The position numbers and the translations under genes are program-made. A stretch of 64,000 bases of DNA from Ophioderma brevispina. Its lineage: Eukaryota; Echinodermata; Ophiuroidea; Amphilepidida; Ophiodermatidae. Numbering within the stretch: position 1 is the first letter of the stretch; every line of letters starts with the position of its first letter. The stretch lies in NCBI GenBank assembly GCA_023653785.1, contig JAMKCH010012636.1:1-64000 (forward strand), written 5' to 3'. This document shows positions 26,788-63,886 of the stretch, piece by piece. The notes beneath the pieces were generated by a model. That model was not told where the DNA came from. It saw nothing but the letters and a program-made list of their open reading frames with translations, and made no database searches.

Positions 26788-26942
26788 TGAGCCAATGTAG
26801 CCTGTCGTTTGCCGCTTGCTTCTTTGACGAACTCTGTAAAGAAACGCTCATTGAGCTGATTACTACGTGTGACGTCACTTCCTGTAAAAACTCCAGCAAG
26901 CATGCAACATGCCGAAATTCTCTGCGAACCTTCCTGAAGAAA
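26788..26942 (+). CDS. GFR (GDNF receptor alpha) domain, first half, exon
   Basis: The acceptor TTTTTCTTGCAG precedes the exon and the donor GTAGGT follows; phase 1 in, phase 0 out, 51 full codons. The peptide has six cysteines in the GFR pattern: SQC, a six-residue gap, AAC-FFDELC, ITTC, TSC, then HATCRNSLRTFLKK. The last part matches the conserved C-x-x-A/S-L-R-x-F-F/L block of GFR alpha domain 2, and AACFFDELC matches its ACNLDDIC-like segment. The second half, carrying the C-x-C motif, should begin in the next exon, which was not found; the 12-kb palindrome and other repeats fill the following 20 kb. A KNSSK sequon is present. The start of the protein, with signal peptide and any domain 1, lies upstream and is unidentified. 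Confidence 0.6.
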
Positions 26943-29900
26943 GTAGGTCTTAAGCATTTAATTTGAAATCAGCACAAATGCACACTACACACCCACACCT
27001 ATACATTTACCCACAAAACACAGGCACTCACAGATCTACTCTCATGTCATGATGATGAAGCATTCTGGCTTGACTTCCAGGGGAAATATATTATTTAATT
27101 TTTAACCTTTCCTACTTGTTACTTAGGGTAAAAGCTTAGTGACCGCATAGCATTTCCTTTGAATACACCTTCACTTTTATAGAACAACTTGTGCATCTTG
27201 TAGTCTTTTTTGGTGGTATTTTTGTGGTACGCGTTTATTGCTCAGGTATTTACTGTACTGCAGCTGCATTTTAAAAACTTATATAATTACACAAAATACT
27301 TCCCACACACTTCCACACCACACACTTTCCATCCCTACACACACTTTAAATATATTTGATAAGTTGCGGTTTATGAATGTTTTTTTGAACCGAAATGTTT
27401 TGAATATTCCGATTGGCTAAACCATGTGTTTTACATTCTTTTTTGTTCCGTATTAAAATCTTTCATACGTGTAACATAATACACAAATGATATATACATC
27501 ATACGCACACATACATACTACACATATACTACACTACTACATTATGACTCTCTGTACATACACAAACGCACAGGTGCCACCACAGGCTGAACCCATAAAT
27601 GTTCTTTTTGTTATTGGTCGACCTGGGGAAATACAATTTCAAAATTTGAGTGGAAAACGTGAATCCACGTTTGGTGCAAAAGGCGAATTGGAGTTAAAGA
27701 ACCACATTGTCTGCAAATAATTGACCAGTGCTCAAATCAACCGTGATGCCACAGGTACGTTCAATTCGTTTAAGCGGCAATGGCACATTTTTAACAAAAT
27801 ATTAAATTTGCTTCAATTTGGCCTTCAAATGGTAGTCTTAGGCATTGGAAGAATACAAAACAATTTAACATATAAGAACATCCCCAAAAAATAAGAGGCT
27901 ATTAAAAAGACACAGGTAAATTTGTAGGTGACGTTTTGGGTATTCAGATAATGAGTCTATTATATCGTCATGAAGTCTTCCAACAACAGGCAAATCGAAC
28001 CATTTTGGCGAAATTGAAGTTTTTTTTTGCATAATATATACTAATATCACAATCTCTTTTCATAAACCCATATTAGCACAAATAACATTCCAATTTTTCG
28101 ATATAATAGATTTTTCACTTTGGGATCATACCCAAACGCCCAAATGAAAGTCTTCCAAACGCACCATCTGCATTCGTCTGTTTTGCTTGTATCTGAAAAC
28201 CACCGCACGGGAGCTTATTGAGTGAGCTATCGATCATGGGATACTGCGGAGATTCATCTCCATCGTTTGATCCACACGGGGGGGGGGCTATAGAAAGTCA
28301 TAGGGCCCTAAAGTTTATATTAGTACAATGATTTTAGCTCTATCTGAGACGAGTTTGGCAACACAAAAAATATTATAAAATTTTTTTCCGAGTCGTTTTT
28401 ACTGACAGCATTCTGCCGAATAATTATAAATTACAGTATACTGTACAAACTGATTCAATCAAAAACACTGAACAATATATAATTGTGGCAGTTTATTACA
28501 GAGATTAATGATGTTAAGAATAAAAAAGCACTGACGACATCCTAACTAGTAGGCCTATCGACAAATGTCAACCAAAATGATTACGTCCCGATACCTGTAA
28601 AATTCAGTTGAATTTTGGTACACATATGCATTAAACTGTAAATATAAACTAAATTTGAATGAAACTATACAAATCTTGTTTTGGGATTTTTGGTTGGCAG
28701 AATGCTATTCTTTGCCCCAGTATTTTCCTATAAGATTTAACGTATTTTTTTTCCTGTAAATAAACTTATAATTAATTAATAATAGTGATAAAACATGTGA
28801 TAGATGTTGATATATTCAAAGTTGAAAGTGATACCACAAACATACATGTATTTTAAGTTACGGTAAATGGATGCAAAAAAGTTAACATTTACTCATTTTA
28901 CACCTGTTTGCTGGACATTAATTGATTGTTGAAGTTGTAATAAGTAAATATTCAAATCAGCTAAGCTGGTGATTCAAAGTCAATAACAACCAAGATAATT
29001 TTTTAATAAACCCCGGAGAGGACATAAACAATCACTAATGTAGTAGCCTATTTTCACTTCAATTTTTTTTATAGATAGTTCAAAAACCTCTTGTGAAACC
29101 CTTTCACGTTTTTGATATGAATATTTTGTCCATTTTAATTTACAATAATGAATTGAAAGGAAATATGTATTACATAATTCAATGTTCTTATATATTCCCT
29201 TTATGGTAGCATAGTACGTGGTTATTAGGTATGTGGGTTCATATCAGGTCCCCCAGGTTGATTCCCAGTTTCATAGTAGATAGGCTTTACCTGTTTTTTA
29301 AAAGTTACTTACCATGAAATTAATTTACAGCCAAATTAACCTCGTCTACCCGAAGCCATTTTTTAAAACCAAACTCCCGAAGGGGTGGGGTGGTTACCAC
29401 CCTTATGTCCTTACTGAACATCCGATTCCTGTAATTTGGTACAAAGGATAGCTTAGCGTCTCTTATATTTCCATTTGTAACAAATAAGTACAATGTTCAA
29501 TCCCCATTATGTTGAGAAAGGTGCGAAAATACTGAATATAGGTGGAAATTGATATTTTCGCATTTTAGCGACCCAAACACCTTTTTTTATTCTAGGCACA
29601 AAAGCTCCTCATAAAAACTAGTCAATTGCCCTCATGAATGGATAATATTCCTAACCTTTTCTTGGGATCACACCCTTTATCTTTCCTATACCCCGGTGAT
29701 GTGTTGTTTTGGATAAAAAGAGCGAAATATGGTCAATTGACAATTAGTATTAAAAATGGCAACCAAAAAGGGGGCTTTAGCTAGCCGGGGAAAACCTGAA
29801 GGGGTGCTAACCACCCCCTTAGGTACACGAGGGTTGAGATCAATATGCAATGTAAAACAAAGAACATCAACATCTTATTTTCGTTGTTTCCTCTTTTCTT

Positions 29901-47093: not shown

Positions 47094-47299
47094 ATACAAT
47101 TTTGAAAACTACAAGGAATTGTGCAAAATGGATCCGAATTCCTCCACCGGATGCGTTTACAACTATGGTCAGTGTCGAGCGGCTTGGATAGGTATTCTTG
47201 GAACACCAATTGCAGCAAGTTGTACGTGTAGCAACAGTGGCGTTCATTTTAATGAGTGCATGCATCACGTGAGCATAGTCTTCAGGAATTCATGTTTCG
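47094..47299 (+). CDS. GFR (GDNF receptor alpha) domain exon
   Basis: Acceptor CTTACAG before 47,094; donor GTGGGT after 47,299; phase 2 in, phase 1 out. The peptide holds seven cysteines. It runs ELCKMDPNSSTGC, then GQCRAAWIGILGTPI, then ASCTCSNSGVHFNEC, then an eleven-residue step to RNSC. This is the layout of GFR alpha domain 3: the C-D-C-S-N-S-G block followed by E-E-C-L and, after the same spacing, D-N-T-C. The CSNSG core is identical to the remembered vertebrate family and the E-C to N-x-C spacing is the same. The preceding exon should carry the first cysteines of this domain and is not found. A minor open frame continues past the donor, so the donor choice rests on phase agreement with 50,550. 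Confidence 0.7.
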
Positions 47300-48589
47300 G
47301 TGGGTATCTAAATTTTGCTGCAAATGCTCAACTTATTTTAACATTTGATAAACCTATGAAGAAAAGGGATTAGAAGATAACCTATCGGTTTCGTAGAGTG
47401 TCTAAAGTTCATTAATATACCTAAGTCACCAGATATATGACATAATCTGGGAGTAGTAATCTCAAATGTAACATAATTTTAAGTATTTTGAACTTTTGAC
47501 TCAAAAACTATGGATTAAGTGATGGGTTATATAATTGACTTTTATTGACCTTTCATCAAGTCTTACAGGATGGGCTTGAAGATTTTCTATTTGACTTTGT
47601 TTTAAATTTTACATGAGAGTAAAGGAGTTTAATCCCAGATCATCCATAACTTTTGTAGATGGTCTCAAGTCAATTCACAGGAATAAGGCACACGATCATG
47701 TTACATAATCTGTAGGAGAACTGACTTGAAGTGAAGTATTTTGACCTTTGACCCCTAAATCATGCATCACATGACAAGTCACTATTGACTTTTGTAGTGT
47801 TGACAAGTCCGACAAGATGGCAGTATTAGTTTTGTGTTTTGAGCTAATTCTAATATTTACGCATGATGAGCATTTTGACCCCTGTAACCCTATTGTGACC
47901 TTTGACACCAATTTGGTCATGTCAAAAGTTCGCGTGAATGTAATGTCTTGTGGCCAAATTAAGTCATTATCGCATGTTGAATGTCTGAGAAATTTGTAAG
48001 TTGAAAGAAAGAAGGAGGCAAAATCAGTAAGATCTAACCCGTGGACGCGTCTTAATAAAGGTAAAGCATTACCAGCTTTGATAGATTTCTCATTTACAAG
48101 CTTTCAAACAAGTAACCTTCAGATAAGAAATAATGTGATATTACAGGCGCTCCATACTATTGCAAAATATAACTTTCTGTGCTTCATACGAAAGGCTATG
48201 CAAATAAGCTCAAATATATCTTATTTGAATCTGATCATGCCATTTTTATAATGTGAGCAGTAATTACATGTGTTACAAAAGCTGATACGGTTCATAGCCT
48301 TGTTCATGGTGCTCTACCAACTTCATTCATTGGTTCACATGTCTAATACAAATAATGTCACAGATCATTTTAGGTAGAAATCATGCAGAATGAAGCATAT
48401 TCCCCCTCCCCAAAACTAAAATAGCCTTTACCATGGCGAGAATTTACTCTATTAAGCGCCTAATTTGATTTCTAAATCACCTGTGTATGGCTTCCAATGG
48501 CAAGTTCAATCAGTTCTACTCAGGCAGAGCGTGCCTTGTTTAATCTCTCAGGCTTTTTCTCTGACTAGCACAACCACTGCATCTGACCA
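47300..48589. other. Intron, mostly unremarkable
   Basis: Contains scattered TGACCTTTGACC-type words (47,490-47,910) typical of dispersed repeats; no exon recognised. Confidence 0.3.
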
Positions 48590-48837
48590 CTATGTGTATT
48601 TGTGGTTTTATAGGTAGACTATATAAGGACAAAATCCGATATTATAGTAATTACACACTTATCTACCACACCTAATTGAAAGGGGAATCATATATTTGAC
48701 TGCTGTTTTCTTTCTTTTCTATCAATTTTTCAATTGGAAAAATTAATTTATAAGAACTGTACAGACTATCTTTCACCTAAGTTATCAATTTCAAATATTT
48801 TTACTTTTTTTTTTGATCACTGATAGTGTCTTTAATC
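48590..48837. repeat. Dispersed repeat ending TCACTGATAGTGTCTTTAA
   Basis: Matches about 36,300-36,563 in the same orientation (ATAAGGACA-AATC, TTCCTTTTCT-like and CAAATATTTT words, and the same terminal word). The left terminus is not clear. Confidence 0.45.
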
Positions 48838-48941
48838 TACCTCTAGATAGGGTAGTCATTTGACGCTAAAGTACTGATTCCAAGCTCTGCAAACAAGAAT
48901 AAATGTCTATAATATAAAACATTGTGAAAAATAAATAGCAA

Positions 48942-49233
48942 CAAGGTGCTTTGAATCAATCACACAATGCATTGCAATGGGACTATACTGTACTAAACAC
49001 ATATCAGTACTTAGGGATAAAAAGGTGTTCAAAAAGTATAAGAACCACAAGCCATTTCATGATCAAGCAAAACAATCCCCAAGTATATACTAGTACCATG
49101 TGGGCTAAACTGAGTGTAAAAGTTACAGTTTTTATGTGTTAAGAATAGGATTTTTGTGGGATCACATGACCTTGTTGAGGTGGAATTTCTCAAAAACTGG
49201 TACATTGTGGGATTGACTCAGTACACCTTCTGG
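48942..49233. mobile_element. hAT-type MITE, copy 2 (CAGAGGGTG family)
   Basis: Collinear with 5,308-5,599: TTTGAATCAATC, CAGTACTTAGGGATAAAAA, GTGTTAAGAATAGGATTTTT, TTGTGGGATTGACTCA. Ends diverged (AAGGTGCTTTGAA at the left, CACCTTCTG at the right); no clear target duplication. Confidence 0.65.
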
Positions 49234-49460
49234 TTCTTAGCAGACCGTCTTGAGCAAGGCTAAATAGGTGTATTGTTTCTGGTAATCATAAATAGCCCAT
49301 TCTCGCCTGTAGCATTGTAATGAGACAGAATTCAGCCACAATATTTTGCAGATATGGAATATGAAGAATTCAAGGTTTCTAATCATCAAAATCTTGGGTT
49401 TGATAGGATGCATAACACTACCATAGCTTGTAGACCATCATATCGCAAAACCGGTGTAGA

Positions 49461-49609
49461 AGTAATTATAGTCCGCCGTACTTATGGTCCGGATACAACG
49501 GTAAATAGGGCACTCGATTCAGTTGACTCTTCACACAACATTAGTTTCACGCTATATTCCGTTGTCGTCTATGGACCCGGACTCTGGCTCCCGGCGGACT
49601 ATAATTACT
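49461..49609. mobile_element. Small MITE, copy 2 (AGTAATTATAGTCCGCCG ends)
   Basis: Inverted ends AGTAATTATAGTCCGCCG and its mirror. The interior matches 3,052-3,193. It accounts for most of a 102-codon open frame, which is therefore not called as a gene. Confidence 0.7.
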
Positions 49610-49811
49610 TTCAAACTGGGTCACGAAAAGTCAAGCTTATTGCAAGGCGATTGAGCAATTAGTGACGTTCCATCGGCGAAAGGGTGTGTGTTGTGACTGG
49701 ATGCGTCCAATGGTGAAAATTTCTCAAAATGTTTGAGTGGGATATTGCATAAATCCCCCCTCCAAAAGTAACTAAAATTAAAAGAACAAAAAATACAGCA
49801 TTCACTGAACA

Positions 49812-49985
49812 TGTGTCATCTGCCATCATAGTTTATGAATGGGGGAAAGACCACATGAGGTCACCAACATGTGGGACAATGACCATTGTGTCCAAGTGTC
49901 GTGAAAATTGATTGACACGTGATTGACACCAAGCAGTTTGATAATTCTGACCATTTTGGGCCATGTCTTCTAATATTTAGACATT
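49812..49985 (-). repeat. Dispersed repeat, inverted partner of 57,526-57,752
   Basis: Read on the - strand it gives GGCCCAAAATGGTCAGAAT, TTGGTGTCAATCACGTGTCA and TTGGTGACCTCAT, matching the + strand at 57,526-57,752. Confidence 0.6.
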
Positions 49986-50017
49986 TTACCACAGACACAC
50001 ACACACATTACAGACAG

Positions 50018-50321
50018 CAGTGGCATACCAACTGGGGTTGAGGGAGCAAGTCCCCCCCCCCCCCCCGGCTTGAAAAAACAGGATGATATGGACAAAATAT
50101 GATTTGGATCCCTCTTCAAGGAATTGTGACCAATTTCAGCTAAATTTGGGCAGGATTAAAGTACGTTTGGCAGTTTTCGTCCATTATGCGCGCATTTCGT
50201 CAAGTTCAGACTTAATTGGAGCAAATCACTGGGATGAATTTGACTTACTAATTTTGCCCCCTCTGGCGGGACTTGGGAATTTTGCCCCTCTGGATCGACT
50301 GCCTCAGTACGTACACCACTG
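50018..50321 (-). mobile_element. hAT-type MITE, CAGTGGCGTACC family, copy 2
   Basis: Inverted relative to 45,464-45,764: CAGTGGCATACC at one end, GTACACCACTG at the other. It shares AAATCACTGGGA and GGATCGACTG words with copy 1 and has an internal run of 17-18 C. The flanks ACAGACAG / ACACACAA are only partly alike. Confidence 0.7.
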
Positions 50322-50549
50322 ACACACAAACACACACCACTACCAAAGCAATCCCTATATGCCCTCTTGCAGACGACACAAAAAGTGGCCCATTTGCCAA
50401 AATGCAGGCCTTTCCAACTCAACATACATTGCATTATGATCAAAATGGTGTATCATGTGCGTCAATATTTTCTGCAACGGGCAAGAACTTCATGATCTCG
50501 CGGATGTATGGTGAATGCATGAAATGTACATATCTTTATTCTTTTACAG

Positions 50550-50642
50550 ATAGAGCCAGCCATGCCTACTACAGGAGTGAAAACGTCATAAAAGAAAAGA
50601 CAAATGATGATTATCAAAGTGATGAGCCAAACCAATATGAAG
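50550..50642 (+). CDS. Linker exon of the GFR/RECK-like gene
   Basis: Acceptor TTCTTTTACAG before, donor GTTAGAT after; phase 1 in, phase 1 out, 31 codons. The peptide is hydrophilic and acidic (RASHAYYRSENVIKEKTNDD then YQSDEPNQYE), with no cysteine, so it reads as a spacer between the GFR part and the RECK-like part. Only this frame is open, and it joins in phase with the exons on both sides: GAT from 47,299/50,550 and GGA-TGT from 50,642/51,289. No homology is claimed for the linker itself. Confidence 0.5.
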
Positions 50643-51049
50643 GTTAGATATTTTATGTTTTTGCAGCATATTAAGATCCGAAGAGAGCGATATACCTTCC
50701 TTTCTAAAGCAGACCCATTATTGTTTCTTGGAAATATTCAGAAATGCATACGGGATAATACAAATTGTATTATCTTTGATGGCAAACCAAGTTTACATTC
50801 AGAATTTCAATTACACCATAAATAAGTACTTAAAAATTAAAATCATCAAGTAAATGAAACGAGTGTGATCAATAATTCTCTCGCACAGAAACACAATTGC
50901 TTTCCTTTTCACAACCATAATGCAAGGTATTAAAGATAAACCAACACAATTAATGTTCTATCTTTTTAAGCAATACAAATTCGTTTCGGACGATGATTCA
51001 GTTAATAATGAAAACAAACACACAAAATAAACAAGTAAAACTTGTTATA

Positions 51050-51140
51050 CCCCTGACTGATAGTAGGGTTATAAAATCCCAATCTAGAAGTTTGGGGAAG
51101 AAGGTTTGAAGATGTTTTTCTATAGTTTGGAGGGTGCCGG
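51050..51140 (-). repeat. Dispersed repeat, inverted partner of 21,520-21,615
   Basis: Shares CTTCTTCCCCAAACT, ACCCTCCAAACTATAGA-like and ATAACCCTACTAT words with the earlier copy, in the opposite orientation. Confidence 0.5.
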
Positions 51141-51288
51141 ATTGAGCATTTTCGTTTGTGCGCCGCACTTACTTGTTAATAACTTGTATCCTAAAGGAGT
51201 TACAACAGACATTATGTAGATTTAGTTGCCATTTTAATATTTTTGGTTCAGTTGTTCATCAGTTATTTTCATGATTTTGTTTCACTAG

Positions 51289-51353
51289 GATGTAATCTTA
51301 ATCTGGAGCCGACAAAAATTGAATACAATGTTTCTGCAGGGCAAGTTGTAAGG
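51289..51353 (+). CDS. Start of the RECK-like cysteine domain, exon
   Basis: Acceptor TTTCACTAG, donor GTAAGT; phase 1 in, phase 0 out. Encodes GCNLNLEPTKIEYNVSAG then QVVR. The first cysteine and the ~28-residue step to the next one in the following exon correspond to the remembered vertebrate RECK segment GCKLGEASDFIVRQGT-LIQVP. It contains an NVS glycosylation sequon. A nearby acceptor at about 51,480 would give a stop after seven codons and is a decoy; the exon at 52,301 continues the alignment. Confidence 0.6.
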
Positions 51354-52300
51354 GTAAGTTCAGTTGGAGAAACAAACTTGGTACTAAATGCATACACACT
51401 GCAAATTCATGGTTGTATAACACTTTTAGATGCATTTTGGAAAAACATTAACAAGACTTGTATAATGCACATTTTTTTCAGATACCTGCTCCCATAAAAC
51501 ACTGACATTTAAAAAACTAACACCATTATTCATAATTTAAATAACCACAATTTAAAAAAAATATTTCAATGGCTAAAAGCATTTAAAAGACTTTCTAGAA
51601 AAAACTTGTAAACACCAAGGTGTACTTCATTCTAAATGCATCTAAGTGTTTTGAAACACTGTTAGCTTGTTTGCAATAACATCAATTCCCACGGGCTGGA
51701 GTACTATCCAAGCTATAGTAAGCTCACAGACAAAAGAAATCTAAATGCCGAAACCTCTTGTATTTATCCCTTAAATCCCTAAATGCCATTGTTTGCCACT
51801 TTTCAAAAATCATGAGGCAGACCCCTGCCTTGTGTTTACGGGAAAGTGCTACCACTACCTCCCTTTTTGAGGTGTTCGTCAGGTTGCAAGTCATCTTACT
51901 CTAGGGATGTAAGGGATATGTGAACAGAATAACAGAAAGAACAGCCATAAACAGAAAATATGCAACTTCCATCATTAAGTTTACCTGCAAATTACTCTTT
52001 CATCAAATTCTATATTTATGTGGTTCAATATGCAGTGCATCTTCTAGGATATTCCTAGAAGATGCAACTGCTATGTACTCTGATAAATATTTACCACTTT
52101 TTGGGCAGAATCTAGCCAAAATATAGAACAAGCATACAAATTATTGTGCAAACTCTATAGTACAGTTTGCCCTTGGCCACCATTAGTTTCAGTTACATGT
52201 GAGAGTTAATTCTTATTAGATTGTTGGAGAACTTTCATGTTACTAAATCAAGTGCAGTGTATATTCAGATGAAGCTAAAAATCATGTTCCTATAATATAG

Positions 52301-52430
52301 ATTCCTAAAGTGGATCGAGGCTGTTTGTCTACTACAGAATGTGTTTGTTCGGTCAGTGAGATTCTCGTCAATTGTAAGGATCTTCCCTGTATCCAAATGA
52401 AACCTTGCTACATATCTGGTGATATTAAAG
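52301..52430 (+). CDS. RECK-like cysteine domain, second exon
   Basis: Acceptor ATAATATAG, donor GTGAGC; phase 0 in, phase 1 out, 43 codons. Cysteine pattern: IPKVDRGC, STTECVCS, ILVNC, DLPC, QMKPC, then ISGDIK. The remembered vertebrate RECK order is GC, ICSC, LLENC, EMHC, LQKSC, GGKRK, with nearly the same spacing. This agreement in seven consecutive cysteines is the strongest evidence for RECK kinship. The large intron that follows (3.9 kb) contains a Gypsy fragment and a 181-bp hairpin. Confidence 0.65.
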
Positions 52431-52479
52431 GTGAGCTAATAGGTCAACTGTAAGCATCTTCCCTTAATTCTCAGAAATT

Positions 52480-52970
52480 GCATGTCCATTGACCAACCTT
52501 CAGAAGAAAGATACAAAGTTTGGTCAGGCCAATGCCAAAACACGTCTATCTTGATGAATGCACCAGTTTTGATTGCACCAGACTTTCAGAAACAATTCAA
52601 GTTGGCCGTTGATGCCAGTGATGTAGGCTATGGTGGAGTTCTCATTGCAGGCAGATGGAAATGCTGTAGATTACCCTGTATGTTATTTCTTTAAGAAGTT
52701 TGACAAACATGAGAAAAACTACTCTACAATTGAGAAAATGTGTTCAACATTGCTATTGTCATTGCAAAATGTTGAAGTGTACTTGAGTACAACAGTGTAC
52801 CCAGTTCTTGTGTACAGGGATCACATCCATTAGATGAAAAACAGAATATCAGATACTTGTAAGGTAGAGTTTCACTCTACAATAATACAATCTGGACATA
52901 AGACGTATCAAAGGAAAAGAAAATGTCTTGGCAGATGCCTTGTCCAGAGCTGCCTAAATTTGGATAAAAA
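52480..52970 (+). pseudogene. Ty3/Gypsy reverse transcriptase / RNase H fragment
   Basis: Pieces in three frames: an APVLIAPDFQKQFKLAVDAS stretch with a GYGGVL block (RT-RNase H junction and the first RNase H acidic residue), then YPVCYFFKKFDKHEKNYSTI with a VYLSTTVYPVLVY segment, and finally a VLADALSRA end near 52,930-52,960. These are hallmark blocks of Gypsy polyproteins. Frameshifts occur near 52,650 and 52,830. No protease, integrase or upstream RT was found, so it is a dead fragment inside an intron of the host gene. Confidence 0.8.
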
Positions 52971-53133
52971 ATTCAGAAATTCAGTATTACGACTGGTAAT
53001 GTAGACTGAGTGCAGCAGTGCAAGAACACTATAAAAAGTGTAAAATTTACACTGTGTACACTGTATATAAGTTAACCATGAAATGGTTAAAGCCAGATTT
53101 TGGGAAATTTTAATTTCATTCAAATTTTCTTTT

Positions 53134-53143
53134 AAGGGGAGGA
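53134..53143 (+). other. Candidate polypurine tract of the Gypsy fragment
   Basis: AAGGGGAGGA is followed by TGTTATAGG, the usual look of a polypurine tract and LTR start. The RNase H end is only ~170 bp upstream, so the integrase region is missing. The LTR end could not be located, and no second LTR was seen. Confidence 0.35.
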
Positions 53144-53777
53144 TGTTATAGGTTCCTTTTTGTGATTGGAATATTTCTGTTTTGTTTTTCACTTGAGAAA
53201 AGATTCCTGACAGAGAAAGTACTTAATTTGATCATGCAAAAGAGAAAATGGAATTCCCCTAGTGCTATATTTCATGAGATCATGCCAGATGTTGTTTACA
53301 CAAAGTTTAAAAGCTACTATTTTGGCCATGGGATCAAAGGAAATATTGTTCATTTTGATTACATACTTCGCCGAAGTAAATCATTTTCCCACTAAAAATA
53401 CTAATAAATATTATAATTACCATTCTTATTCAGTGGGCGTGGTTTATCATGTTAACAAGAAATTTGATTGGATTAGGTCAAAGCTCCGCCCATCCATTAC
53501 TGGGTAATAGATGGATAGTGCGTGCAGCAATTACGCGGTGTAGTAGAATGTATGACTCTCGAAAACTGCGCGTTTATACTGCGTCGTGTATTTCGCGTTG
53601 GAACGCAAATGCAATTTACGCAGCGTGACGATCACCGCGCGATGACTTGGATTGAAACATTTTGTTTTCAAGAGGGGTGCAATTATTTAAATGAATAAAA
53701 AAGAATGATGTTAGAATATTTTTGACAAATAAATTAAGTCGATAAAAAGCAAAAATTACACATTTCTAAATAAGAAT

Positions 53778-53958
53778 GAGAATAAAAGATGAGATTTTTT
53801 GTTTTGGCCATCTTAGATGGTGTCATAATGGATGGGCATCCAATATTTTATCGTGGTGGATACCGGCTCCGCCGGCATCCACCACTCAAAATATTGGATG
53901 CCCATCCATTATGACACCATCTAAGATGACCAAAAAAAAAATCTCATCTTTTATTCTC
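53778..53958. mobile_element. 181-bp near-perfect hairpin (palindromic MITE)
   Basis: Arms of about 88 bp pair almost perfectly around CCGGCTCCGCCGG near 53,868. Mirrored words: GAGAATAAAAGATGAGATTT, GGCCATCTTAGATGGTGTCA, TAATGGATGGGCATCCAATA. A 61-codon frame runs through it, but this is a consequence of the symmetry. It could be a young MITE or a hairpin-RNA source. Confidence 0.85.
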
Positions 53959-54275
53959 TAATTCATTGGGTATGTCAATCATAAAGGTTGCATATTTTCA
54001 TGAAAATGAATAAAATGCCATCTCAATTTCTTTTCTGAATATCAGAGACCAAGGGACATACACTATGGTACATTGACTCAAGCAAATAATGGCGTTATTG
54101 ATAAGTAAATCCACCCGGTAAGTAGCTAACAGAGCACTTTAGATTCCCTTTTTTATTTAGAACTGCACACCATTGTTACTGTCCATGCAGCTGAAAAGAT
54201 TTTCAGGTGTTAGTACTGCCAAGTTTAGATTGAGCTGGCCTCGTTCGCGATTAAAATAATCTGAGGTTCTACTGT

Positions 54276-54642
54276 GAGTTCAATAATTTTTACTGTATAT
54301 TTCATTTTTTTGAAAAAAGAAAGGAATGTGAACAAAACCCATGGTAATGTTGCTTGGTTAAGCTGTGACCTAACATCTTTGTGCAGAACCATGATCCATA
54401 ACTTATTGCTGGACCTCATTTATATTCAATTTACCACCATGTTTTTAGAAGAGTACAATAGTAGGCTAACAATGCAGTAAATTGAATAGAAATGGGGTTA
54501 TCCGGCAAGTTTAAGTTAAGTTTTGCTTCTGCACAAAGATGTTAGATCACATTTTTCCAAACAACTTTCTTTCATGATTTTGGTTCATCTTTGTTTCCTT
54601 TTAAAAAAATGATGAAATATACGGTCAAGGTTAATTGAACGC
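54276..54642. mobile_element. Inverted-repeat MITE (367 bp)
   Basis: The ends GTTCAAT...TGTATATTTCAT are mirrored at the right. The arms also share TAACATCTTTGTGCAGAA near the centre. Moderately diverged. Confidence 0.6.
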
Positions 54643-56365
54643 CCCAGTAAAAGCCCATTTAAGGTTTATTTATTTGTGAAAGAGGCCAAGTATTTTGTGC
54701 TTTGCGTCATGAAAAAATAGATCAATCTTATCGGTGTGGTGCTATAGCATCTGAAATCTTTTCAACTGCATGGGTAATAACAATGGCTCTGTACTTCCAG
54801 ATAAAAAGTAATTTGAAGTGCTTTATCCTCTGCATACCAAGCGGATTTACTGGATATCAACAGTGCTATTGTTTGCCTGAGTCCACTGCATCATGATGTA
54901 CATCTACTGGTCACTGATATTTAGGTAAAGAAATTGTGATATTTTATTCATTTTCAAACAAATGTGCAATTTATGGACTTGACATAACCCAGGGTATTGA
55001 AAGGTATAATATTTAATAATAATCTGTGCAAAAATCAGTCATTTCGCTGATATGCGTAATCAAAGTCCTTATGCAAGCATCTTTCTCTCTTTGATCCCAT
55101 CACCTATATAGATTGGGAATTTTCAAAGCTATGTTGCAAAACAAAGATTGCAAAATAGGTAGTTTCCCATGATGTCATTAATAGCTATTAATAATGTAAG
55201 ATGATGCGATGCATATGATGTCATTTGTGTGCATGATCCAATTGGGCAGCATTAGCTAGGCTATGATTATGCATGATGATGCTGCAATAGTTATTATAAA
55301 GGCAACTGCAGAAAAATATAAAGATTTCTTTTCTGAGAGGAAAAGGGCCAGTTATTAAAGTTAATTTTTATCTGCAGAAATGATAGATCTGTGCAGTACA
55401 TAGTGCCAGGATCAACTGATATTCTAGATATTACAGGGGCTGCATGTGCTAGCTATTTCTCCCCTGTCATCTTTCAAGCCAAAATAGCCTCAGTTTTTGG
55501 AATAAAAAAGATTCCAGTTTATGGTCCTAAAAGTAGCAATTTGCATCATAGCTTATTCTTATGTATACTCTAAATAATCAATATAGAAATTGACTTACAG
55601 CATATCACTGTGTAAAAATCAAACCTGACACTGTACTAACCCGAAATTGAATTTAAATTTAAGAATGGCCAATATTTAATTTAGTAGCTAGTTTAAAGGT
55701 GCTTGTTCCGATCGTCTTTAGGACCCCCCCTGATTTCAATTTTGATATCAGATGAAAGGCCGTATTTTTCTCATTGTCTTCCTGAAATTTCAGCTTTCCA
55801 ATCCATTCCGTTCTCAAGATACTGACAAAAAACTGCCATTTTAATGGTTAACCGTCAATATTAGCACTAGAATAGGGCGTTGCACTGTGCATTATCGCGT
55901 CTAGCATCAAAACCGCAAGTAACTTTCCCACAGTACCTGGTGGCTGTGCCTATATCAGGTCAGGCGTTCAGGATAACACGATACACAAAAATCGGAACAA
56001 GCACCTCTAAAACATTGAAAAGTAGTAGTTTTGAAAATATTCCTTTTTTAAACGTTCATACAGTACACTTATACTTAAGCACTTTCAAAATGTCTTACTA
56101 ATGATCTGATTATTTACAAGTCCTTCACATTACAGCTGGAATGTAATGGCTAGCAAGAAATCATTACCAGTTTATGAGTTTTTAACCTGTTTGGATCTCA
56201 AATTTAAAATGAGCACATTCAACACCAAATTGCAAGTTGTTATCCAGCAGATTTCCTCCAGAAGCAAAAAGTAAGTGATATACTGAAGTTCCTCTTTAAA
56301 AGGTTGGAAAAAGTAGTATTGTTAAAAATATGTTGGTAATTTGAGCTTCCTTTTTTGAGCTACAG
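54643..56365. other. Rest of the 3.9-kb intron
   Basis: Open stretches at 54,702-54,896, 55,391-55,573 and 56,136-56,271 look exon-like, but their reading phases do not fit between 52,430 and 56,366. Otherwise AT-rich with no recognised element. Confidence 0.3.
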
Positions 56366-56458
56366 TAGAACACGGGTACAATTTCAACGCAACAAGCTCT
56401 GGAGGGTGCATCTGCTACACTGGCGAAGTTATCTGTGTCAATCAAAGGAACAAAAATG
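56366..56458 (+). CDS. RECK-like cysteine domain, third exon
   Basis: Acceptor GAGCTACAG, donor GTATGA; phase 1 in, phase 1 out, 31 codons. The peptide reads V-EHGYNFNATSSGGCICYTGE-VIC. The H-G-x-x-F motif followed by C-x-C, a five-residue step and C matches the RECK segment S-HGTSFS, C-S-C, LVC. An NAT sequon is present. In vertebrate RECK the Kazal-type repeats come next; here the next recognised exon (62,992) already corresponds to the C-terminal region, and both sides are phase 1, so a direct join is possible. Confidence 0.65.
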
Positions 56459-56595
56459 GTATGACTACTATGACATGTTTCTAATTTATCATAATCTGCA
56501 TGATTTTAGTTTGATAGTCTCTTCATCAATGACATTTTTTATAGCAAAATTAATTTTAAACAAGGCGAACTCGTATTTACGCGATGCGTAAAATA

Positions 56596-57235
56596 TGTCC
56601 CCGCCGAATTTCGCGATCACTAACATGAGATAAATGCAACTACAACACCCCACCCCCTTCCCAATACCACACAAAACCCCACCCCTCCCCAACACCCCGA
56701 AAAACCCGACCCCCCTCCCCAACACCCCGAAACACCCACCCCCTCCCCAACAGCCCACAACACCCCACAATATTCTTTCATGCAGCGCAGGAATTTGAGT
56801 ATCCGATGTACTGTTTGAAAAATATAGCAATTACGCTTATTTTTGCATATTAATTAGCTCATTTACATACTCAATTTGGCCGAAATACGCCCAAAATCTA
56901 ATTAGTTTGAGAACTCTTCAGCCCGCTTCCTTCCACCAAGTTACATCATTATACGCCTTACAGAACTCCAGAAAACTTGTACAAAGGCCTTGCAGGAAAA
57001 TTTTTCATAAATTATGCAAATTAGATACTTAATTAGCATATTTTACGCCCAAAACCTAGTAGGTCAAGAACTCATCAACCCACTTCTTTCCACCAAGTTG
57101 CATCATTGTCGCTCTTACGGAACTCCAGATAAATCATGTACAACATGGGTTAACATTTTTATCACAGACGGACGGACGAACGGACGGACGCTGCTCATTT
57201 CATAGTCCCCGTTCCGAACTCATTCGGCGGGGACA
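56596..57235. mobile_element. GTCCCCGCCGAA-family inverted-terminus element (640 bp)
   Basis: The left end TGTCCCCGCCGAA and right mirror TTCGGCGGGGACA are short inverted repeats. Subterminal GGACGGACGAACGGACGG runs sit at the right. It encloses a C-rich minisatellite (56,645-56,775). A truncated relative is at 16,141. No frames. Confidence 0.6.
56645..56775 (+). repeat. C-rich minisatellite
   Basis: Degenerate ~25-30 bp units of CCCCTCCCCAACACCCCGAA. It gives rise to a glycine-rich false frame on the - strand and may form four-stranded structures on the G-rich strand. Confidence 0.8.
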
Positions 57236-57525
57236 AAAATATAATTGGTAGTATAAGATATGAATAGTGGCAGCAGCAGTAGTAGTAGAAATAGCAGTAG
57301 GATCAACAGTAACATTATCATCACAAAAGGTAGTAGCAGTGGTAATGAAAGTATTTTGTCAACCTCTGTGCATGCATGTTCCGAATACAATTTCAGCAGC
57401 AAAAGTAGTCTACTTTGATTGAGCCCTTTTTATGTCGTCTGTAAGTGTTTCCAGCACTTGTGGTAAACATCTTAGCCCTAAACATAATTGCCACTGTTTC
57501 CACACACTTTTTGCATATTTTCATT

Positions 57526-57752
57526 ACAGGTCATGGCCTAAAATGGTCAGAATTAGGTAATTACTTGGTGTATCCACATATGTCAATGAAATTTCATGAT
57601 GCTTGGAAGTGGGTAGTGTTCCATATGTTACCTATTAGAGAGTGGGGTCAAAGGTCTTTAAAGAGTCATTAGAGGTCATAGCTCCAAATTGGTTACCTCA
57701 TTTGCACTTTGTTCCCATTCACAAACCATGCTGGCAGACGACACATAGATTT
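57526..57752 (+). repeat. Dispersed repeat, partner of 49,812-49,985
   Basis: GGCCTAAAATGGTCAGAATT, CTTGGTGTAT and TTGGTTACCTCATTTGC match the inverted copy. It explains the 75-codon frame here. Confidence 0.6.
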
Positions 57753-57799
57753 GGGACCGGGGAACTCCCATCTTGAAAGTGATGTGTATGCAAGACTGT

Positions 57800-58100
57800 T
57801 AAGACCCCCTTTTCAGCATCGTTGTCACCAAAAAAACCCATATTTTTTATCATTCCACCCAAAGACCCCTTGTTTTGTCAAAATGTTATCACTGTCACCC
57901 AAAGACCCCAATTTTGGTGGCAAATTTTGAAAATTTTCACCCAAAGACCTCTATTTTTAGAAAATTTTGCAAAAATCTCACTTTTTAGAATATTTTGCAA
58001 ATTTTGCCACTCGGACTGAAACCCCCTATTTTGTGGCAATTTGGCTGTTTCTCACCCAAAGACCCCTACGTTTTTAGTCCTCTGTCAGTGAAGCTTGTAA
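57800..58100 (+). repeat. Dispersed repeat with CACCCAAAGACCCC units
   Basis: At least five CACCCAAAGACCCC/CTC-like units separated by TTTT-rich spacers, related to 44,190-44,400. Confidence 0.55.
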
Positions 58101-58219
58101 AGTTATGTTCTGAGTGTGAAATGCAAGATACACTAAGAGGTGGTATACTGTCTCTATTACTGTTATTGATGAACATACTAATGCAATTTGATAAATTAGG
58201 CCAGTGAAGTTGTACTTTG

Positions 58220-61200
58220 TGGAAGATGTCCAAGTTATTGTTCCGCAGACTATAGAACTCTTGATGAGATTAGTTAATCATTTCCAGCTAAATTTACTGA
58301 GTTATTTGCTTATTTCCCAGAACAAGCTTTTGAAACCATGGCACACTCTAATTGTTGATGTATACAAAAGATAAAGGAAAGTATGCACTATAGTATGGTG
58401 CCTTATCGTTATGTTTTGGGATTTGTCGGCTATTTTGCTACATTTTGATTTTTTGTCTTTTTTGGTAGTATTGACACCTAGGAACTCAAATTTGGTTGTT
58501 CCCATTTTTTTCGACCAGCCGTTTGGCAGCCATCTTGGATTTCAAAATGGCCGCTATTTTCAATATATTTTCCCTCATATCTTCGTTTGTGGGTGGCATA
58601 GAAAGGTAAAATTGGTCTCTATACCCATGTTTGTGATACTAAGGTTTCTATAGAAACCACTATTTAAGTTGCAACTAATTTCGTTTGGTGGCCATCTTGA
58701 ATTCAAAATGGCCGACATGTTGAATGAAGTTTGACCTGTATCTTGACTTTTGAATAACATACTGGGCTAAATATGCTGGCAATACCCATGTTAGAGATAA
58801 TGAGGTTTCCATATTAACCCTAATTTAAGTTGCAACTAATTTCGTTTGGTGGCCATCTTGAAATCAATATGGCTGACATGTTTAATATACTTCGCCCTGT
58901 ATCCTGACATGTAAATAACATACAGGCCTAAAATACTTTTTTTGGTAGTATTGACACTGTAAATTTCAAAATGGCTGCTATTTTTAATACACTTCTCCCA
59001 ATATCTCGGCTTTCCGAGCTACATAGGAAGCTAAAAAGATAGTTAGCCTATACCAACGTATGTTTTTTCAATGATGCTACAATCTGGGTTCTACAATCTT
59101 GGAAAAAATCAGTTGGAATACTCACCACAATTTGCTACATTGTTCACCTGGGCCAGAGTTAAGAGCCAATCTTCCACTTCAACTTACCCTTCCCCTTCCC
59201 CAACACCCATCGATCAATGTTGGGAAAATTGGGAAGACTTCTGATGAGGATAACCAATTTCTACATTGGTGTGGAAGACAGTTTTCCGAGAATTGTTCAA
59301 ATTGTTCCAAGAATTATGTTCAAGATTGTGGCTTATTTGTTAGATCCCCATATTGAATTTCAAAATAGTCCCCATTATCATTCAGTATATTTTTCCTTCA
59401 AGGTGGATTTTGGCTTGTGAGCTACATAGAAAGTACAAAATATGGCAATACCCATATGTTTGTGATACCATTTTCAAAATTGCCACTTTTAAGTTGTAGC
59501 TCATTTGTTTAGATAGCCAGATATACATGCATTGTAACCATAAAGGTAAAGGGATAGACCTGTGTACACAGGAACGAAATGCCCATCTATCTTTTGAAAT
59601 GATATTGGGATGTTTTCGCTGCACCAAAGAAAATGTTAAGTGAAGAAATGATTGTAACAGATTAATAGGAGCGAGTCAGAGAATGAATTGTTGTGGACAC
59701 CAAGAGCAAATTTTGAGTCAGATGTGACTTTAAGCTACTTTAGAGATGTAATACCACATTAATAGCAAAAAGTGAAATATGGTGACACACCCAGACACAA
59801 ATCTCTAGTTTAAGAGATAGGATGGTCCTGAAAAGGATCTCTGTTGAGGTGTTGGAATAGGTCTAGCCAGTAGCCAGATGTTAAGATGTTAAGATTAACT
59901 CCCAGTACGGCCACGATTGATGCAATGAGAAAATATCCATTCTCCACCAGCTGACAAGACAATGTTAATTAAAAGGTAGCAACCCTTTTTGTGAGTAAAA
60001 TCTCAGTCAAAGTTGAGTTAACCTTCTTCTTGCATATGAGACAGGAGCCAAATATATTGAAGGTGGTGGAGCCAGCTCACTGTTGATTGGTTGGGGTTTG
60101 AGAAGTCTATATCCACCGGTGGACGAAAGGTAGGGCACTCGTTGAGAATGTGCTGCCGAGCTGGTGTGATTCTTTGACAGCGTTATGCAGCAGGTGCTTG
60201 TTGTCCAACAGACCCTTATTCACCAGTTTATCATCATGTGATGTTCTTTTCGAAGCACTCCTGCAGGTGTAATGCCTGAGAGAACTGGTAGAAACTCAGA
60301 TGGAGTGGGACGAAGGCAGCCAGTAATGGTTCTCATGGTCTCGTTGAGTACTGTGTCCAGCTTCTTTGTGTGAAAGCTATTGCACCATGCTGGGGTGGCA
60401 TATTCAGCAGCACTGTAGACCAGAACCAGGGCGGTGGTGCGTAGAGTGAATGGGCTAGCACCCCATGAAGATCCAACAAGGTGACACAGGAGGTTATTCC
60501 TCGAAGATACCTTTGCACAAAATAACTCGAGATGGTGCCGATATGTAAGCTGCTGATCAAGCTTCACTCCCAGATAAGTTGGTGTAGGATTGTTTGGCAG
60601 AGGCACTCCATTGAGGTTGATTTGAAGCTGGCGATGAGCCTCTTTGGTGTTGGCGGTGGTCTTGGCTTTAATCAGCTTGAGTGTCCAGCTCTTGAGATAT
60701 GCTGCAAGTAGGGCCATATCTGCAGTAAGTGTACTTTCTACTTCAGTCCAGCTTCTGTCCAGAAGAAGGGCAAGATCGTCGGCTTAGCCATATTGTCTAG
60801 ATGTTGTTGTTATACAAATTGAACAGCATGGGAGCCAGTACTGATCCTTGTGGGACTCCGTTCCTCAGGCGACGCAGTCGACTGCTCTGCCCATCACTGG
60901 TCTTAAGAACAAAGCTACGGTTTGCAAGCATGTTGCGTGAATTGTACAAGGTGATGATCTGGGATGGTCCTGAGAAGCTTGAGTGTCAAGCCCTGGTGAC
61001 ACACGGTGTCATATGCAGTAGTAAGGTCCAGCAAGATGACGCCTGCCTTACGACGCTTTTCAAAGCTATCCTCAATATCATAATGTGAGTTTTACAATCT
61101 GATGGACAGTGCTCTAGCCACGCCGAAATCCTGCTTGTTCGTCAGGCAGATGGGATTCGACGACTGGCTCCAGCCGGGCCAGGATCAGCCTCTTCAAGGA

Positions 61201-62530
61201 GTTTGAAGAAAACACGCAGTAGTGATATTGGGCAGTAGTTCTTGGGGTTGTCAACAGGCTTGTTTGGTTTAGGGTGTGCGATGATGGTAGCCCTCCTCCA
61301 GATCTTTGGTAAGGACTGGTTGGTAAGGCAACATGTGTAGAACTCCTGGAGCCATTCAAGACATCATGGGCCACAGTGCATCATGAACTCCATTGGTATA
61401 TTATCAGGCCCCTGGGCCTTTTCACTCTTTAGTTGGCTGATAGCAGAGATAAGCTCATCTAGTGAGAAGGGTGTTGAAAGTGATCTCTTTTTTTAACAGA
61501 GCGAGTGTGATCCTTTTCAATGTCCTTGGAACGACCATTTGCGAGGAGTTGCTCAGCTATTGAGTTGGCAGACACAAGACATTTCGTTGGTTTGGATGAT
61601 TAACCTTAAGAAATGTAGGGCGACATATAATTAGCTTTGCCCAACTTTGATGTCTTTACTCAATGGAAAGGGTAATTGTTACTGTTTTATCAGTACAGTA
61701 AAACACAACTAGTACCAACTTTAGTGAAGTGAAATTGTGGAAGATCCCCAGCATTACAAGTATGAGTATTACCACCATTTTCTAGTCCAGTATGTTATTC
61801 ATAAGTCAAGATACAGGCCAAAGTGAATTTACACATGTCGGCCATATTGAATTCAAGATGGCCGGCAAACATAATTATTTGCAACTTAAATAATGGTTTA
61901 TATAGAAACCTCAGTGTCACAAACATGGGTATTGCCACCATTTTTAGCTATTTTTAGCACTGCATGTTTTTCGAAGTCAAGAAAATGCCAAAGTACATTA
62001 AACATGTCGGCCATATTGAATTCAAGATGGCTGCCAAACGAAATTAGTTACAACTTAAATTATGGTTTATATAGAAACCTCAGTATCACAAACATGGGTA
62101 TTGCCAACGGTTTTAGCACTGTATGTTATTCAGAAGTCAAGATACAGGCCAAAGTATATTCAGCATTACAACTTAAAATATGGTTTCTATAGAAACCTTA
62201 GTATTACAAACATGGGTATAGAGACCAATTTTACCTTTCTATGTCACCCACAAACGGAGATATGAGGGAAAATATATTGAAAATAGTGGTCATTTTGAAA
62301 TCCAAGATGGCTGCTAAACAGTTGGTCAAAAAAAAATGGGAAAAACCAAATTTGTGTTCCTTGACCTCAGTTTTACCTAAAAAAAGACAAAAAATCAAAA
62401 TGTAGCAAAAAATCCATTAAATAACACAAGGACCCATACTATTAGAATGAAGTGCAAAAAGACAAAATACCAATCACAGTCTCTAATTTCATAATCACAG
62501 TATCTAATTTCATCAAGAGCGGATGAGCTA
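58220..62530. mobile_element. 4.3-kb fold-back element with tandem subunits, LINE inside
   Basis: Arms about 58,220-58,945 and 61,780-62,530 are inverted copies. They share CATTTTGATTTTTTGTC, GCAGCCATCTTGGATTTC, ATACCCATGTTTGTGAT and TCTTGATGA-ATTAG in mirrored order. Within each arm a ~160-bp unit (ATACCCATGT..., AAGTTGCAACTAATTTCGTT..., GCCATCTTGAATTCAA...) is repeated: two units at the left, about three at the right. The region between holds a Jockey-like LINE fragment (60,020-61,600). It lies entirely within the host gene's 6.5-kb intron. Confidence 0.65.
60020..61600 (-). pseudogene. Jockey-like LINE reverse transcriptase fragment
   Basis: On the - strand, in order: a segment ending in LARLEPVVESHLPDEQAGFR (up to 61,114), a GVPQGSVLAPMLFNLYN block near 60,820-60,880, the catalytic box, a 165-codon open frame (60,717-60,220) with TYLGVKLDQQLTYRHHLE and YSAAEYATPAWCNSFHTKKL, and a downstream QRVPYLSSTG-like tail to about 60,020. 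These are standard Jockey-clade blocks. The catalytic Y-A-D-D box reads stop-A-D-D (60,775-60,786), and there are frameshifts near 61,260 and 60,230. The 5' half is missing. Confidence 0.8.
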
Positions 62531-62991
62531 TTTTGTTACAATCTTGCAGTTTGTTCTTAATAATATTTGAACATTTTGCTCAATTCCTTAATGCACTAGT
62601 CTGAAGCAAAGTCTTTTCTTAATGTTTTCTTAGTGTGAGTAATGGGTTATTTCATACTTCAAGTTTGTTGTACACATGAATACAGTTGGAATTATTTGTT
62701 TGCTAGTGGAGGCAAATTTCAGTTTTGTGGTTTTTGCCAGCAACGCAGCTCCCAGATTCATCTATGCTACTTGCAACCAGACATGCAATGACTTGTACCA
62801 TTATACCAAGGAGGTGTTTGACCAAATGCCCAGTTGGTTTAGGTTATAAGATTTAGGAACTACTGGCTTTGCATAGGTTGACCAGTGCACCAGTGATTCC
62901 GCACAAGAAGAGTGCTGTAGAAGCATTATACTCTAGTGGTTATTTTACAGGCTAGTACAACCTGTATTTGATTTTTAATTGTTTTTTATAG
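62531..62991. other. End of the 6.5-kb intron
   Basis: A frame without ATG (about 62,680-62,848) contains NAAPRFIYATCNQTCNDLYH and is coding-like. However, it ends in a stop without a usable donor and its identity is unknown. No Kazal-type exon was found in the intron. Confidence 0.3.
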
Positions 62992-63125
62992 GCTCCTCAT
63001 GTTTGTTCCTTGGATACAGTCTAATTGAGCTCCACCAGATTAAAGGACATGTTACTGATCACTTCAGTGTAGAATCAGTTACTTCTAAACTTGAAAAGCT
63101 GCTTAATTACAGATTACCAGATTTG
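62992..63125 (+). CDS. RECK-like C-terminal region, first exon
   Basis: Acceptor TTTTTTATAG, donor GTGAAT; phase 1 in, phase 0 out. Encodes G-SSCLFLGYSLIELHQIK, then a ~25-residue amphipathic stretch ending KLEKLLNYRLPDL. The remembered RECK counterpart, from CPLCAGMLRVLF to TVLEILQKIR, has the same length and pattern (C, two to three residues, G, then hydrophobic positions and a C-terminal L-E-x-L/I-L block). Only moderately similar residue by residue; the call depends on its place between recognised exons. Confidence 0.55.
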
Positions 63126-63173
63126 GTGAATATGAATATTTATGTTTCTTTTAAAATGTGACGTGTGGGCACA

Positions 63174-63264
63174 TTTTGTGTTTGTGTGAGTTCACATGAG
63201 TGGGTGGGTGGGTGTGTATGTGCGCATGTGTGTGGTTGAGTGATGTGTCTGTGTGCATTTTTGT
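63174..63264 (+). repeat. GT-rich microsatellite in intron
   Basis: TGTGTGAG, GGTGGGTGGG and TGTGTGTGG units between the two C-terminal exons. Confidence 0.8.
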
Positions 63265-63405
63265 GCAGTCTTTGTTGCTTGCTTCCGCTTTAAAAATGGA
63301 CTAAAAAGCCTAAGTCTCTACATTGCAATGCAAAAGGTATTTGAATATTTACAATGCAACTGGTCTGTGTAAATATCTGTGTTAACTAATTTGTCTTATT
63401 AACAG

Positions 63406-63480
63406 AAAACTTGTTCGCTGAATATAGAAAGTCAAGAAGATGAGCAGCTTGTTTTGTGTCTTACTCAAGACTCAGAATCG
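63406..63480 (+). CDS. RECK-like C-terminal region, second exon
   Basis: Acceptor CTTATTAACAG, donor GTGGGT; phase 0 in and out, 25 codons: KTCSLNIESQEDEQLVLCLT then QDSES. It aligns with the RECK stretch C...FSIESEIVILIIP, with C, then IES, then a hydrophobic strand. If the donor at 63,480 were not used, the frame would read on for about 100 codons into the intron to a stop at 63,787, so the splice call rests on homology in the next exon. Confidence 0.6.
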
Positions 63481-63655
63481 GTGGGTAGAGAATGTAGTGA
63501 ATCGTTTTTGGACATATCTTTCAAATTAAATTTTAACAAGTTAAACTACTTTATTATGTTGGATTTCACACCTTATAGTTTGCCTGATATATATTTGGCA
63601 TGGAAAATAATACCAAGCCTAAAAGCTTATACTTCTGATTATTTGTTTTCATTAG

Positions 63656-63886
63656 GTGAGATACTGCAAGGAACAAATGGTTACTTTGGTCAACTTTATC
63701 AACAACAGGACACCATGCATAACAACCGATGTGGTTTTATCAGTGATCAAAGTTGCCTGTACGAATACAGAATTACCTCGGTTATCTGAAATGCACGCCT
63801 CATCAGGAATTGCTGATGAATCGTCATATATGTTACTGATCTTAACCATGTCTTTTCTTGCATCGTACATATCAGTCTTCTTATAA
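63656..63886 (+). CDS. Terminal exon with GPI-anchor signal
   Basis: Acceptor TTTTCATTAG, phase 0, stop TAA at 63,884-63,886; 76 residues. The first part, VRYCKEQMVTLVNFINNRTP followed by C-ITTDVVLSVIK, parallels RECK IEACNKEAEKIESLIN-SDSP and its following L-S segment. The last ~21 residues (YMLLILTMSFLASYISVFL) are hydrophobic with nothing after them, and are preceded by small residues (HASSGIADESS): the layout of a GPI-attachment signal, as in both RECK and GFR alpha. An NRT sequon is present. Downstream to 64,000 no AATAAA is seen, so the transcript ends outside the window. Confidence 0.7.
   Translation: MRYCKEQMVTLVNFINNRTPCITTDVVLSVIKVACTNTELPRLSEMHASSGIADESSYMLLILTMSFLASYISVFL

What the first reader, a model, noticed from the sequence alone, without database searches (positions are those of the whole stretch)
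47094..63886. Possible new receptor architecture: GFR domains joined to a RECK-like C-terminus with GPI anchor
Seen: eight exons whose splice phases all match, giving one 341-codon frame from a GFR domain 3 pattern (CTCSNSG core) through a linker into seven or more cysteines spaced as in RECK, ending in a GPI-type tail. Known: GFR alpha proteins are GPI-anchored co-receptors for GDNF-family ligands; RECK is GPI-anchored and controls metalloproteases and Wnt7 signalling. Inference: one gene encodes both, so either an unrecognised kinship links these two families or a domain fusion arose in this lineage. The RECK comparison uses remembered vertebrate sequence.
Basis: partly seen in the sequence, partly recalled or inferred. 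Interest (0 to 1): 0.92.

Follow-up and report, generated by a model that had tools for sequence, protein, structure and literature searches.

The report
GFR receptor with a RECK module
A genome that is probably a brittle star's carries one gene joining a nerve-growth-factor-type co-receptor (GFR) to a two-domain piece otherwise typical of the protein RECK, and a known brittle-star protein shows the same join, so this mixed receptor seems real and its function is open.

Summary
Eight + strand exons (47,094-63,886) splice in phase into 340 codons plus stop. The protein has a GFR domain (Pfam GDNF, 22.2 bits), then EGF1_RECK and FnI_RECK in RECK's order. An HMM of 20 vertebrate RECKs scores it 44.5 bits; 2,500 shuffles reach at most 11.0. 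An annotated Amphiura filiformis protein has two GFR domains plus the same module on one chain, which argues against merged neighbours. Corrections: the secure RECK match is RECK's middle (residues 519-608 of P0004), not its C-terminus; the last ~150 residues resemble RECK only weakly. CC, frizzled-like and Kazal domains were not detected, so RECK's Wnt7 and protease roles do not carry over. RECK exons lie elsewhere in the same genome; one starts at the same codon and phase. Two more GFR exons lie at 26.8 and 27.6 kb; the second is broken by stops and shifts, perhaps assembly error. Most likely: a membrane-anchored, non-canonical GFR co-receptor with a RECK-type stalk. No transcript was seen.

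The parts
26788..26942 (+). upstream exon, first half of a GFR domain (51 codons), phase 0 at its 3' end
   Evidence: Pfam GDNF 21.7 bits (cut-off 22), E 3.6e-4 (query ran a few residues past the donor); aligns to Amphiura residues 7-56; AG/GT borders
27574..27754 (+). probable next GFR exon (end of second-last GFR domain, start of last), interrupted by stops and frameshifts; its donor fits the acceptor at 47,094; 5' border uncertain
   Evidence: frameshift-tolerant alignment to P0001 scores 65; all other places at 26.9-47 kb, both strands, at most 40; borders
47094..47299 (+). exon 1 of the finding: GFR domain 3 (CTCSNSG core)
   Evidence: 62% identity to P0001
50550..50642 (+). exon 2: end of GFR domain and linker
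   Evidence: in phase; start (DRASHAYY) conserved in P0001
51289..51353 (+). exon 3: start of RECK-type EGF1 domain, 5' intron phase 1
   Evidence: 59-62% identity to P0001
52301..52430 (+). exon 4: rest of EGF1 and start of FnI domain
   Evidence: EGF1_RECK and FnI_RECK
56369..56458 (+). exon 5: FnI domain; begins inside codon E of E-H-G, phase 1, as does the FnI exon of RECK in the same genome
62992..63125 (+). exon 6: C-terminal region, no known domain
   Evidence: in phase; no Pfam match better than E 0.13
63406..63480 (+). exon 7: C-terminal region
   Evidence: in phase
63656..63886 (+). exon 8: C-terminal region, hydrophobic tail of GPI-signal type, stop TAA

Best explanation
A single gene for a cell-surface protein of the GFR (GDNF receptor alpha / GAS1) superfamily in which GFR domains are followed by the EGF1-FnI module of RECK, an undescribed C-terminal region and a hydrophobic tail that probably directs GPI anchoring. 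Shown: the exon chain, both domain types on one chain in two genomes, homology to RECK's module, RECK exons elsewhere in the same genome. Inferred: the GFR part binds a partner at the cell surface without the known GDNF-binding residues, and the RECK module is a membrane-near stalk or a second binding site. It probably arose by recombination that placed RECK-type EGF1-FnI exons behind GFR exons; in the window the module is bordered by phase-1 introns on both sides, so the reading frame would survive such a move.
Against: No transcript was seen. A strict signal-exon filter listed no start exon upstream. The exon at 27.6 kb has stops and shifts, so this copy cannot be read as one protein from the upstream GFR exon. 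P0001 ends soon after FnI (306 aa) and does not support exons 6-8. In RECK on C13100 the exon before FnI is noisy and its donor, as assembled, is one base out of phase, so only the acceptor side of the shared intron is checked; and no intron follows FnI there (the exon runs on, with a frame change, into Kazal 1). EGF1_RECK stays below its Pfam cut-off. No functional data. (Confidence lowered from 0.72 to 0.70 on recheck because of the donor.)
Confidence: 0.7

Rival explanations
1. Decayed gene: the locus is a pseudogene of a GFR-RECK receptor that still works in Amphiura.
For: The 27.6 kb exon shows two TGA stops in the frame that fits best and several frame changes; no start exon found.
Against: The other nine exons, 1,179 bases, are open with intact splice borders. 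The same assembly shows stops and shifts in RECK exons, and two contigs that carry the same RECK exon differ by 22 mismatches and 25 gap positions in 324 columns, so assembly error explains the broken exon at least as well. That RECK comparison could itself be of diverged copies.
Confidence: 0.17
2. Two neighbouring genes, a GFR gene and a RECK-derived gene, joined by mistake.
For: 3.25 kb intron between exons 1 and 2; RNA evidence is lacking.
Against: Amphiura protein P0001 has both parts on one chain and conserves residues across both joins; exon 2 carries the end of the GFR domain and the linker, with no stop or anchor in it.
Confidence: 0.06
3. The module is a generic VWC/FnI-like cysteine module that resembles RECK by convergence, not descent.
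For: EGF1_RECK stays below its Pfam cut-off (23.7 of 27); DUF7921 also matches the FnI stretch of P0001 (4.7e-5) while two RECKs list no DUF7921 match at E<=10 (HMMER's filters drop most matches above 0.1).
Against: Both RECK-specific families match, adjacent and in RECK's order; VWC scores only 10.9 bits; 44.5 bits with the RECK HMM; FnI exon start at the same codon and phase.
Confidence: 0.12

Closest known systems
GDNF family receptor alpha (GFRalpha1-4, GFRAL) and GAS1
   Same: consecutive GFR domains equivalent to domains 2-3, best PDB match GFRalpha-1; hydrophobic C-terminal tail
   Different: carries an EGF1-FnI pair that I do not know from these proteins (recalled; not searched in vertebrate GFRs); GDNF-contact triad not kept in P0001
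Drosophila Gfrl (PMC3527400; search listing and passages)
   Same: invertebrate GFR-like, GPI-anchored, no GDNF ligand known in insects, long stretch between the last GFR domain and the anchor
   Different: four GFR domains; RECK occurs 0 times in the paper's main text; its C-terminal stretch was not available for comparison
RECK
   Same: EGF1-FnI module in the same order, FnI exon start at the same codon and phase, tail of GPI type
   Different: no CC, frizzled-like, EGF2 or Kazal match here; C-terminal region only weakly similar
P0001, Amphiura filiformis 'GDNF family receptor alpha-4-like'
   Same: same architecture; 54% identity over aligned columns
   Different: 306 aa, ends after FnI; named only as a GFR protein

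Membership tests
GFRalpha/GAS1 superfamily | GDNF/GAS1 domain (PF02351) | tested here: met
   window 22.2 bits, cut-off 22; P0001 57.5 bits, two stretches
GFRalpha/GAS1 superfamily | two or more consecutive GFR domains | tested here: inconclusive
   met in P0001; in the window the joining exon at 27.6 kb is broken
GFRalpha/GAS1 superfamily | secretion signal and GPI anchor | tested here: inconclusive
   hydrophobic C-terminus only; strict filter listed no signal exon; no GPI predictor on hand
GFRalpha as receptor for GDNF ligands | GDNF-contact residues N162, R171, R224 | tested here: not met
   L, F, Y in P0001 (read); F and L at the first two in the window (through), the third lies in the broken exon; residues listed in PMC4349606
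RECK | five CC domains (PF23332, PF22961) | tested here: not met
   no match listed at E<=10 in window protein or P0001; CC4_RECK 4-5 stretches in RECK controls
RECK | frizzled-like domain and Kazal motifs | tested here: not met
   none listed at E<=10; present in RECK controls
RECK | EGF1-FnI pair (PF25027, PF25028) | tested here: met
   23.7 and 30.0 bits on the stretch (cut-offs 27 and 30, so EGF1 falls short on Pfam alone); RECK HMM 44.5 bits
RECK | C-terminal domain after the Kazal motifs | tested here: inconclusive
   4.9 bits, reached by 18 of 2,000 shuffles; local profile score reached by 0 of 300 shuffles, but a deliberately wrong pairing (mid-module against RECK C-terminus, end-free) was reached by 0 of 200 too

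The most novel reading that the evidence does not exclude
The ancestral deuterostome (perhaps bilaterian) GFR receptor already ended in a RECK-type part (EGF1-FnI, perhaps also a form of RECK's C-terminal domain) next to the membrane, vertebrate GFRalphas lost it, and GFR and RECK co-receptors therefore share an ancient membrane-near half; a Pfam family of unknown function (DUF7921) that matches the same stretch in Amphiura but was not listed for two RECKs may mark this module in further proteins.
Probability: 0.2. Interest if true: 0.75.

Novelty: new variant of a known kind. Interest (0 to 1): 0.52.

Why it matters
GFR-like receptors exist in animals in which no GDNF ligand is known, and one paper states that RET seems missing from echinoderms (PMC3527400, passage), so what they bind is an open question. 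A GFR that carries a RECK module gives a concrete handle: a second, defined domain pair. The RECK review sections I read (PMC12842694, sections 6 and 8) give that pair no function either. It also suggests that RECK's EGF1-FnI pair can move as a unit.

Tried and rejected

Structure prediction: P0001 with three rows reached pLDDT 33 and RECK with 20 rows pLDDT 47; neither was used for a fold search.

More GFR domains upstream: a four-sequence GFR HMM over window frames of 25 aa or more ranked the three known places first (95.6, 58.6, 9.3 bits), the next 6.2. Pfam scans of whole + strand frames of 1-27 kb found no GFR domain but also missed the exon at 26.8 kb, so they count for nothing.

Genome searches by family were insensitive: PF02351 found nothing and FnI_RECK gave 14 weak places, best E 0.225, none of them this locus, although the window holds both; the 14 were not followed up. 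P0001 found seven places, four of them this locus; the other three I judged noise after reading their frames. Lamprey RECK found seven places: four on C13100, two on C42696, one on C23888 where the matches are glycine-rich. The request for a second copy of the 27.6 kb exon did not complete. RET was not searched.

The third protein search (RECK) listed 120 of 303 matches; the named ones among them are vertebrate; the 183 unlisted were not seen and could include further joins.

Literature: nine searches answered. No listed title or abstract start was about a GFR-RECK protein; some listings were capped (20 of 23, 10 of 40, 10 of 96). Only open-licence papers are held.

Full report
What is there. 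On the + strand eight exons, 47,094-47,299, 50,550-50,642, 51,289-51,353, 52,301-52,430, 56,369-56,458, 62,992-63,125, 63,406-63,480 and 63,656-63,886, have AG acceptors, GT donors (exons 1-7) and matching phases and give 340 residues and a stop.

The GFR half. On the spliced protein Pfam's GDNF domain reaches 22.2 bits (cut-off 22) over residues 3-67, coded by exon 1, and GFRalpha-1 domain 3 is the best PDB match (E 0.0048). Joined with the brittle-star relative in a profile, the match runs over domains 2 and 3 of GFRalpha-1 with E 7.2e-19. An upstream exon at 26,788-26,942 is the start of one more GFR domain (21.7 bits). A probable exon at about 27,574-27,754 continues it: with frameshifts allowed it scores 65 against P0001, while no other place between 26.9 and 47 kb scores above 40, and its donor fits exon 1. 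It contains stops and frame changes.

Independent confirmation. Of 433 and 1,208 candidates in two searches of 5.8 billion proteins, one protein matched at E<=10: P0001 of the brittle star Amphiura filiformis, E 4.5e-56, named 'GDNF family receptor alpha-4-like', on a contig of 67.8 Mb. The searches see only relatives that share exact words and have similar length, so absence elsewhere is not shown. That the window is from a brittle star is my inference from this one relative.

RECK in the same genome. Lamprey RECK (P0063) finds frizzled-like and Kazal exons on contig C13100 and CC-type and frizzled-like exons on C42696. So the window gene is not RECK itself. On C13100 the FnI exon begins at AG|AA-CAC-GG, the same codon and phase as exon 5 of the window gene. 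The exon before it is noisy and its donor as assembled is one base out, so only the acceptor is checked. No intron follows FnI there. In the window the module is framed by phase-1 introns.

Assembly quality. The genome has 2.51 Gb in 65,844 contigs. RECK exons show stops and shifts, and the overlapping copies on C13100 and C42696 agree at 85.5% over one exon stretch with 22 mismatches and 25 gap positions in 324 columns. A broken exon in the window is thus weak evidence for decay; the two RECK contigs might also be diverged copies.

How it may work. Shown are the domains and their order. Inferred: a secreted, probably GPI-anchored protein. The residues through which GFRalpha-1 holds GDNF (N162, R171, R224; PMC4349606, passages) are L, F, Y in P0001, read along, and F, L at the first two in the window (through); four of nine RET/heparin residues listed there are kept in P0001. 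A canonical GDNF receptor is therefore unlikely; a GAS1-like or Gfrl-like role through another partner is more likely. Since CC4, which contacts WNT7A (PMC12842694, section 8), and Kazal motifs were not detected, RECK's known functions do not follow from the shared module. The module most simply serves as a stalk or second binding surface.

Novelty. Nothing listed in nine answered literature searches described a GFR-RECK protein. The Amphiura record already bears both PF02351 and PF25028 without comment. I file it as a new variant of the GFR superfamily. On recheck the confidence of the best explanation went from 0.72 to 0.70 and that of convergence from 0.10 to 0.12, because the shared RECK intron is checked on one side only.

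Noticed in passing
52,443-52,691 (+): Piece of a retroelement polyprotein in intron 4: Pfam RT_RNaseH_2, E 3.4e-8.
   Followed up: partly
60,220-60,783 (-): 187-codon open frame in intron 5 that reads like a LINE-type reverse transcriptase by eye; no Pfam match at E<=10.
   Followed up: partly
P0001 residues 256-292: The FnI stretch also matches DUF7921 (PF25537, 4.7e-5; window stretch 0.0025), a family not listed for two RECKs at E<=10.
   Followed up: partly
contigs C13100 and C42696 (L030-L035): Two largely collinear copies of the RECK region at 72-87% identity with many gaps: noisy assembly or diverged copies.
   Followed up: partly
58,500-58,900 and 61,830-62,320: The stretches on either side of the retroelement frame in intron 5 look like related repeats in opposite orientation; seen by eye only.
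   Followed up: no
53,800-53,950: Near-perfect inverted repeat around 'ggatgggcatccaatattt' in intron 4, seen by eye.
   Followed up: no
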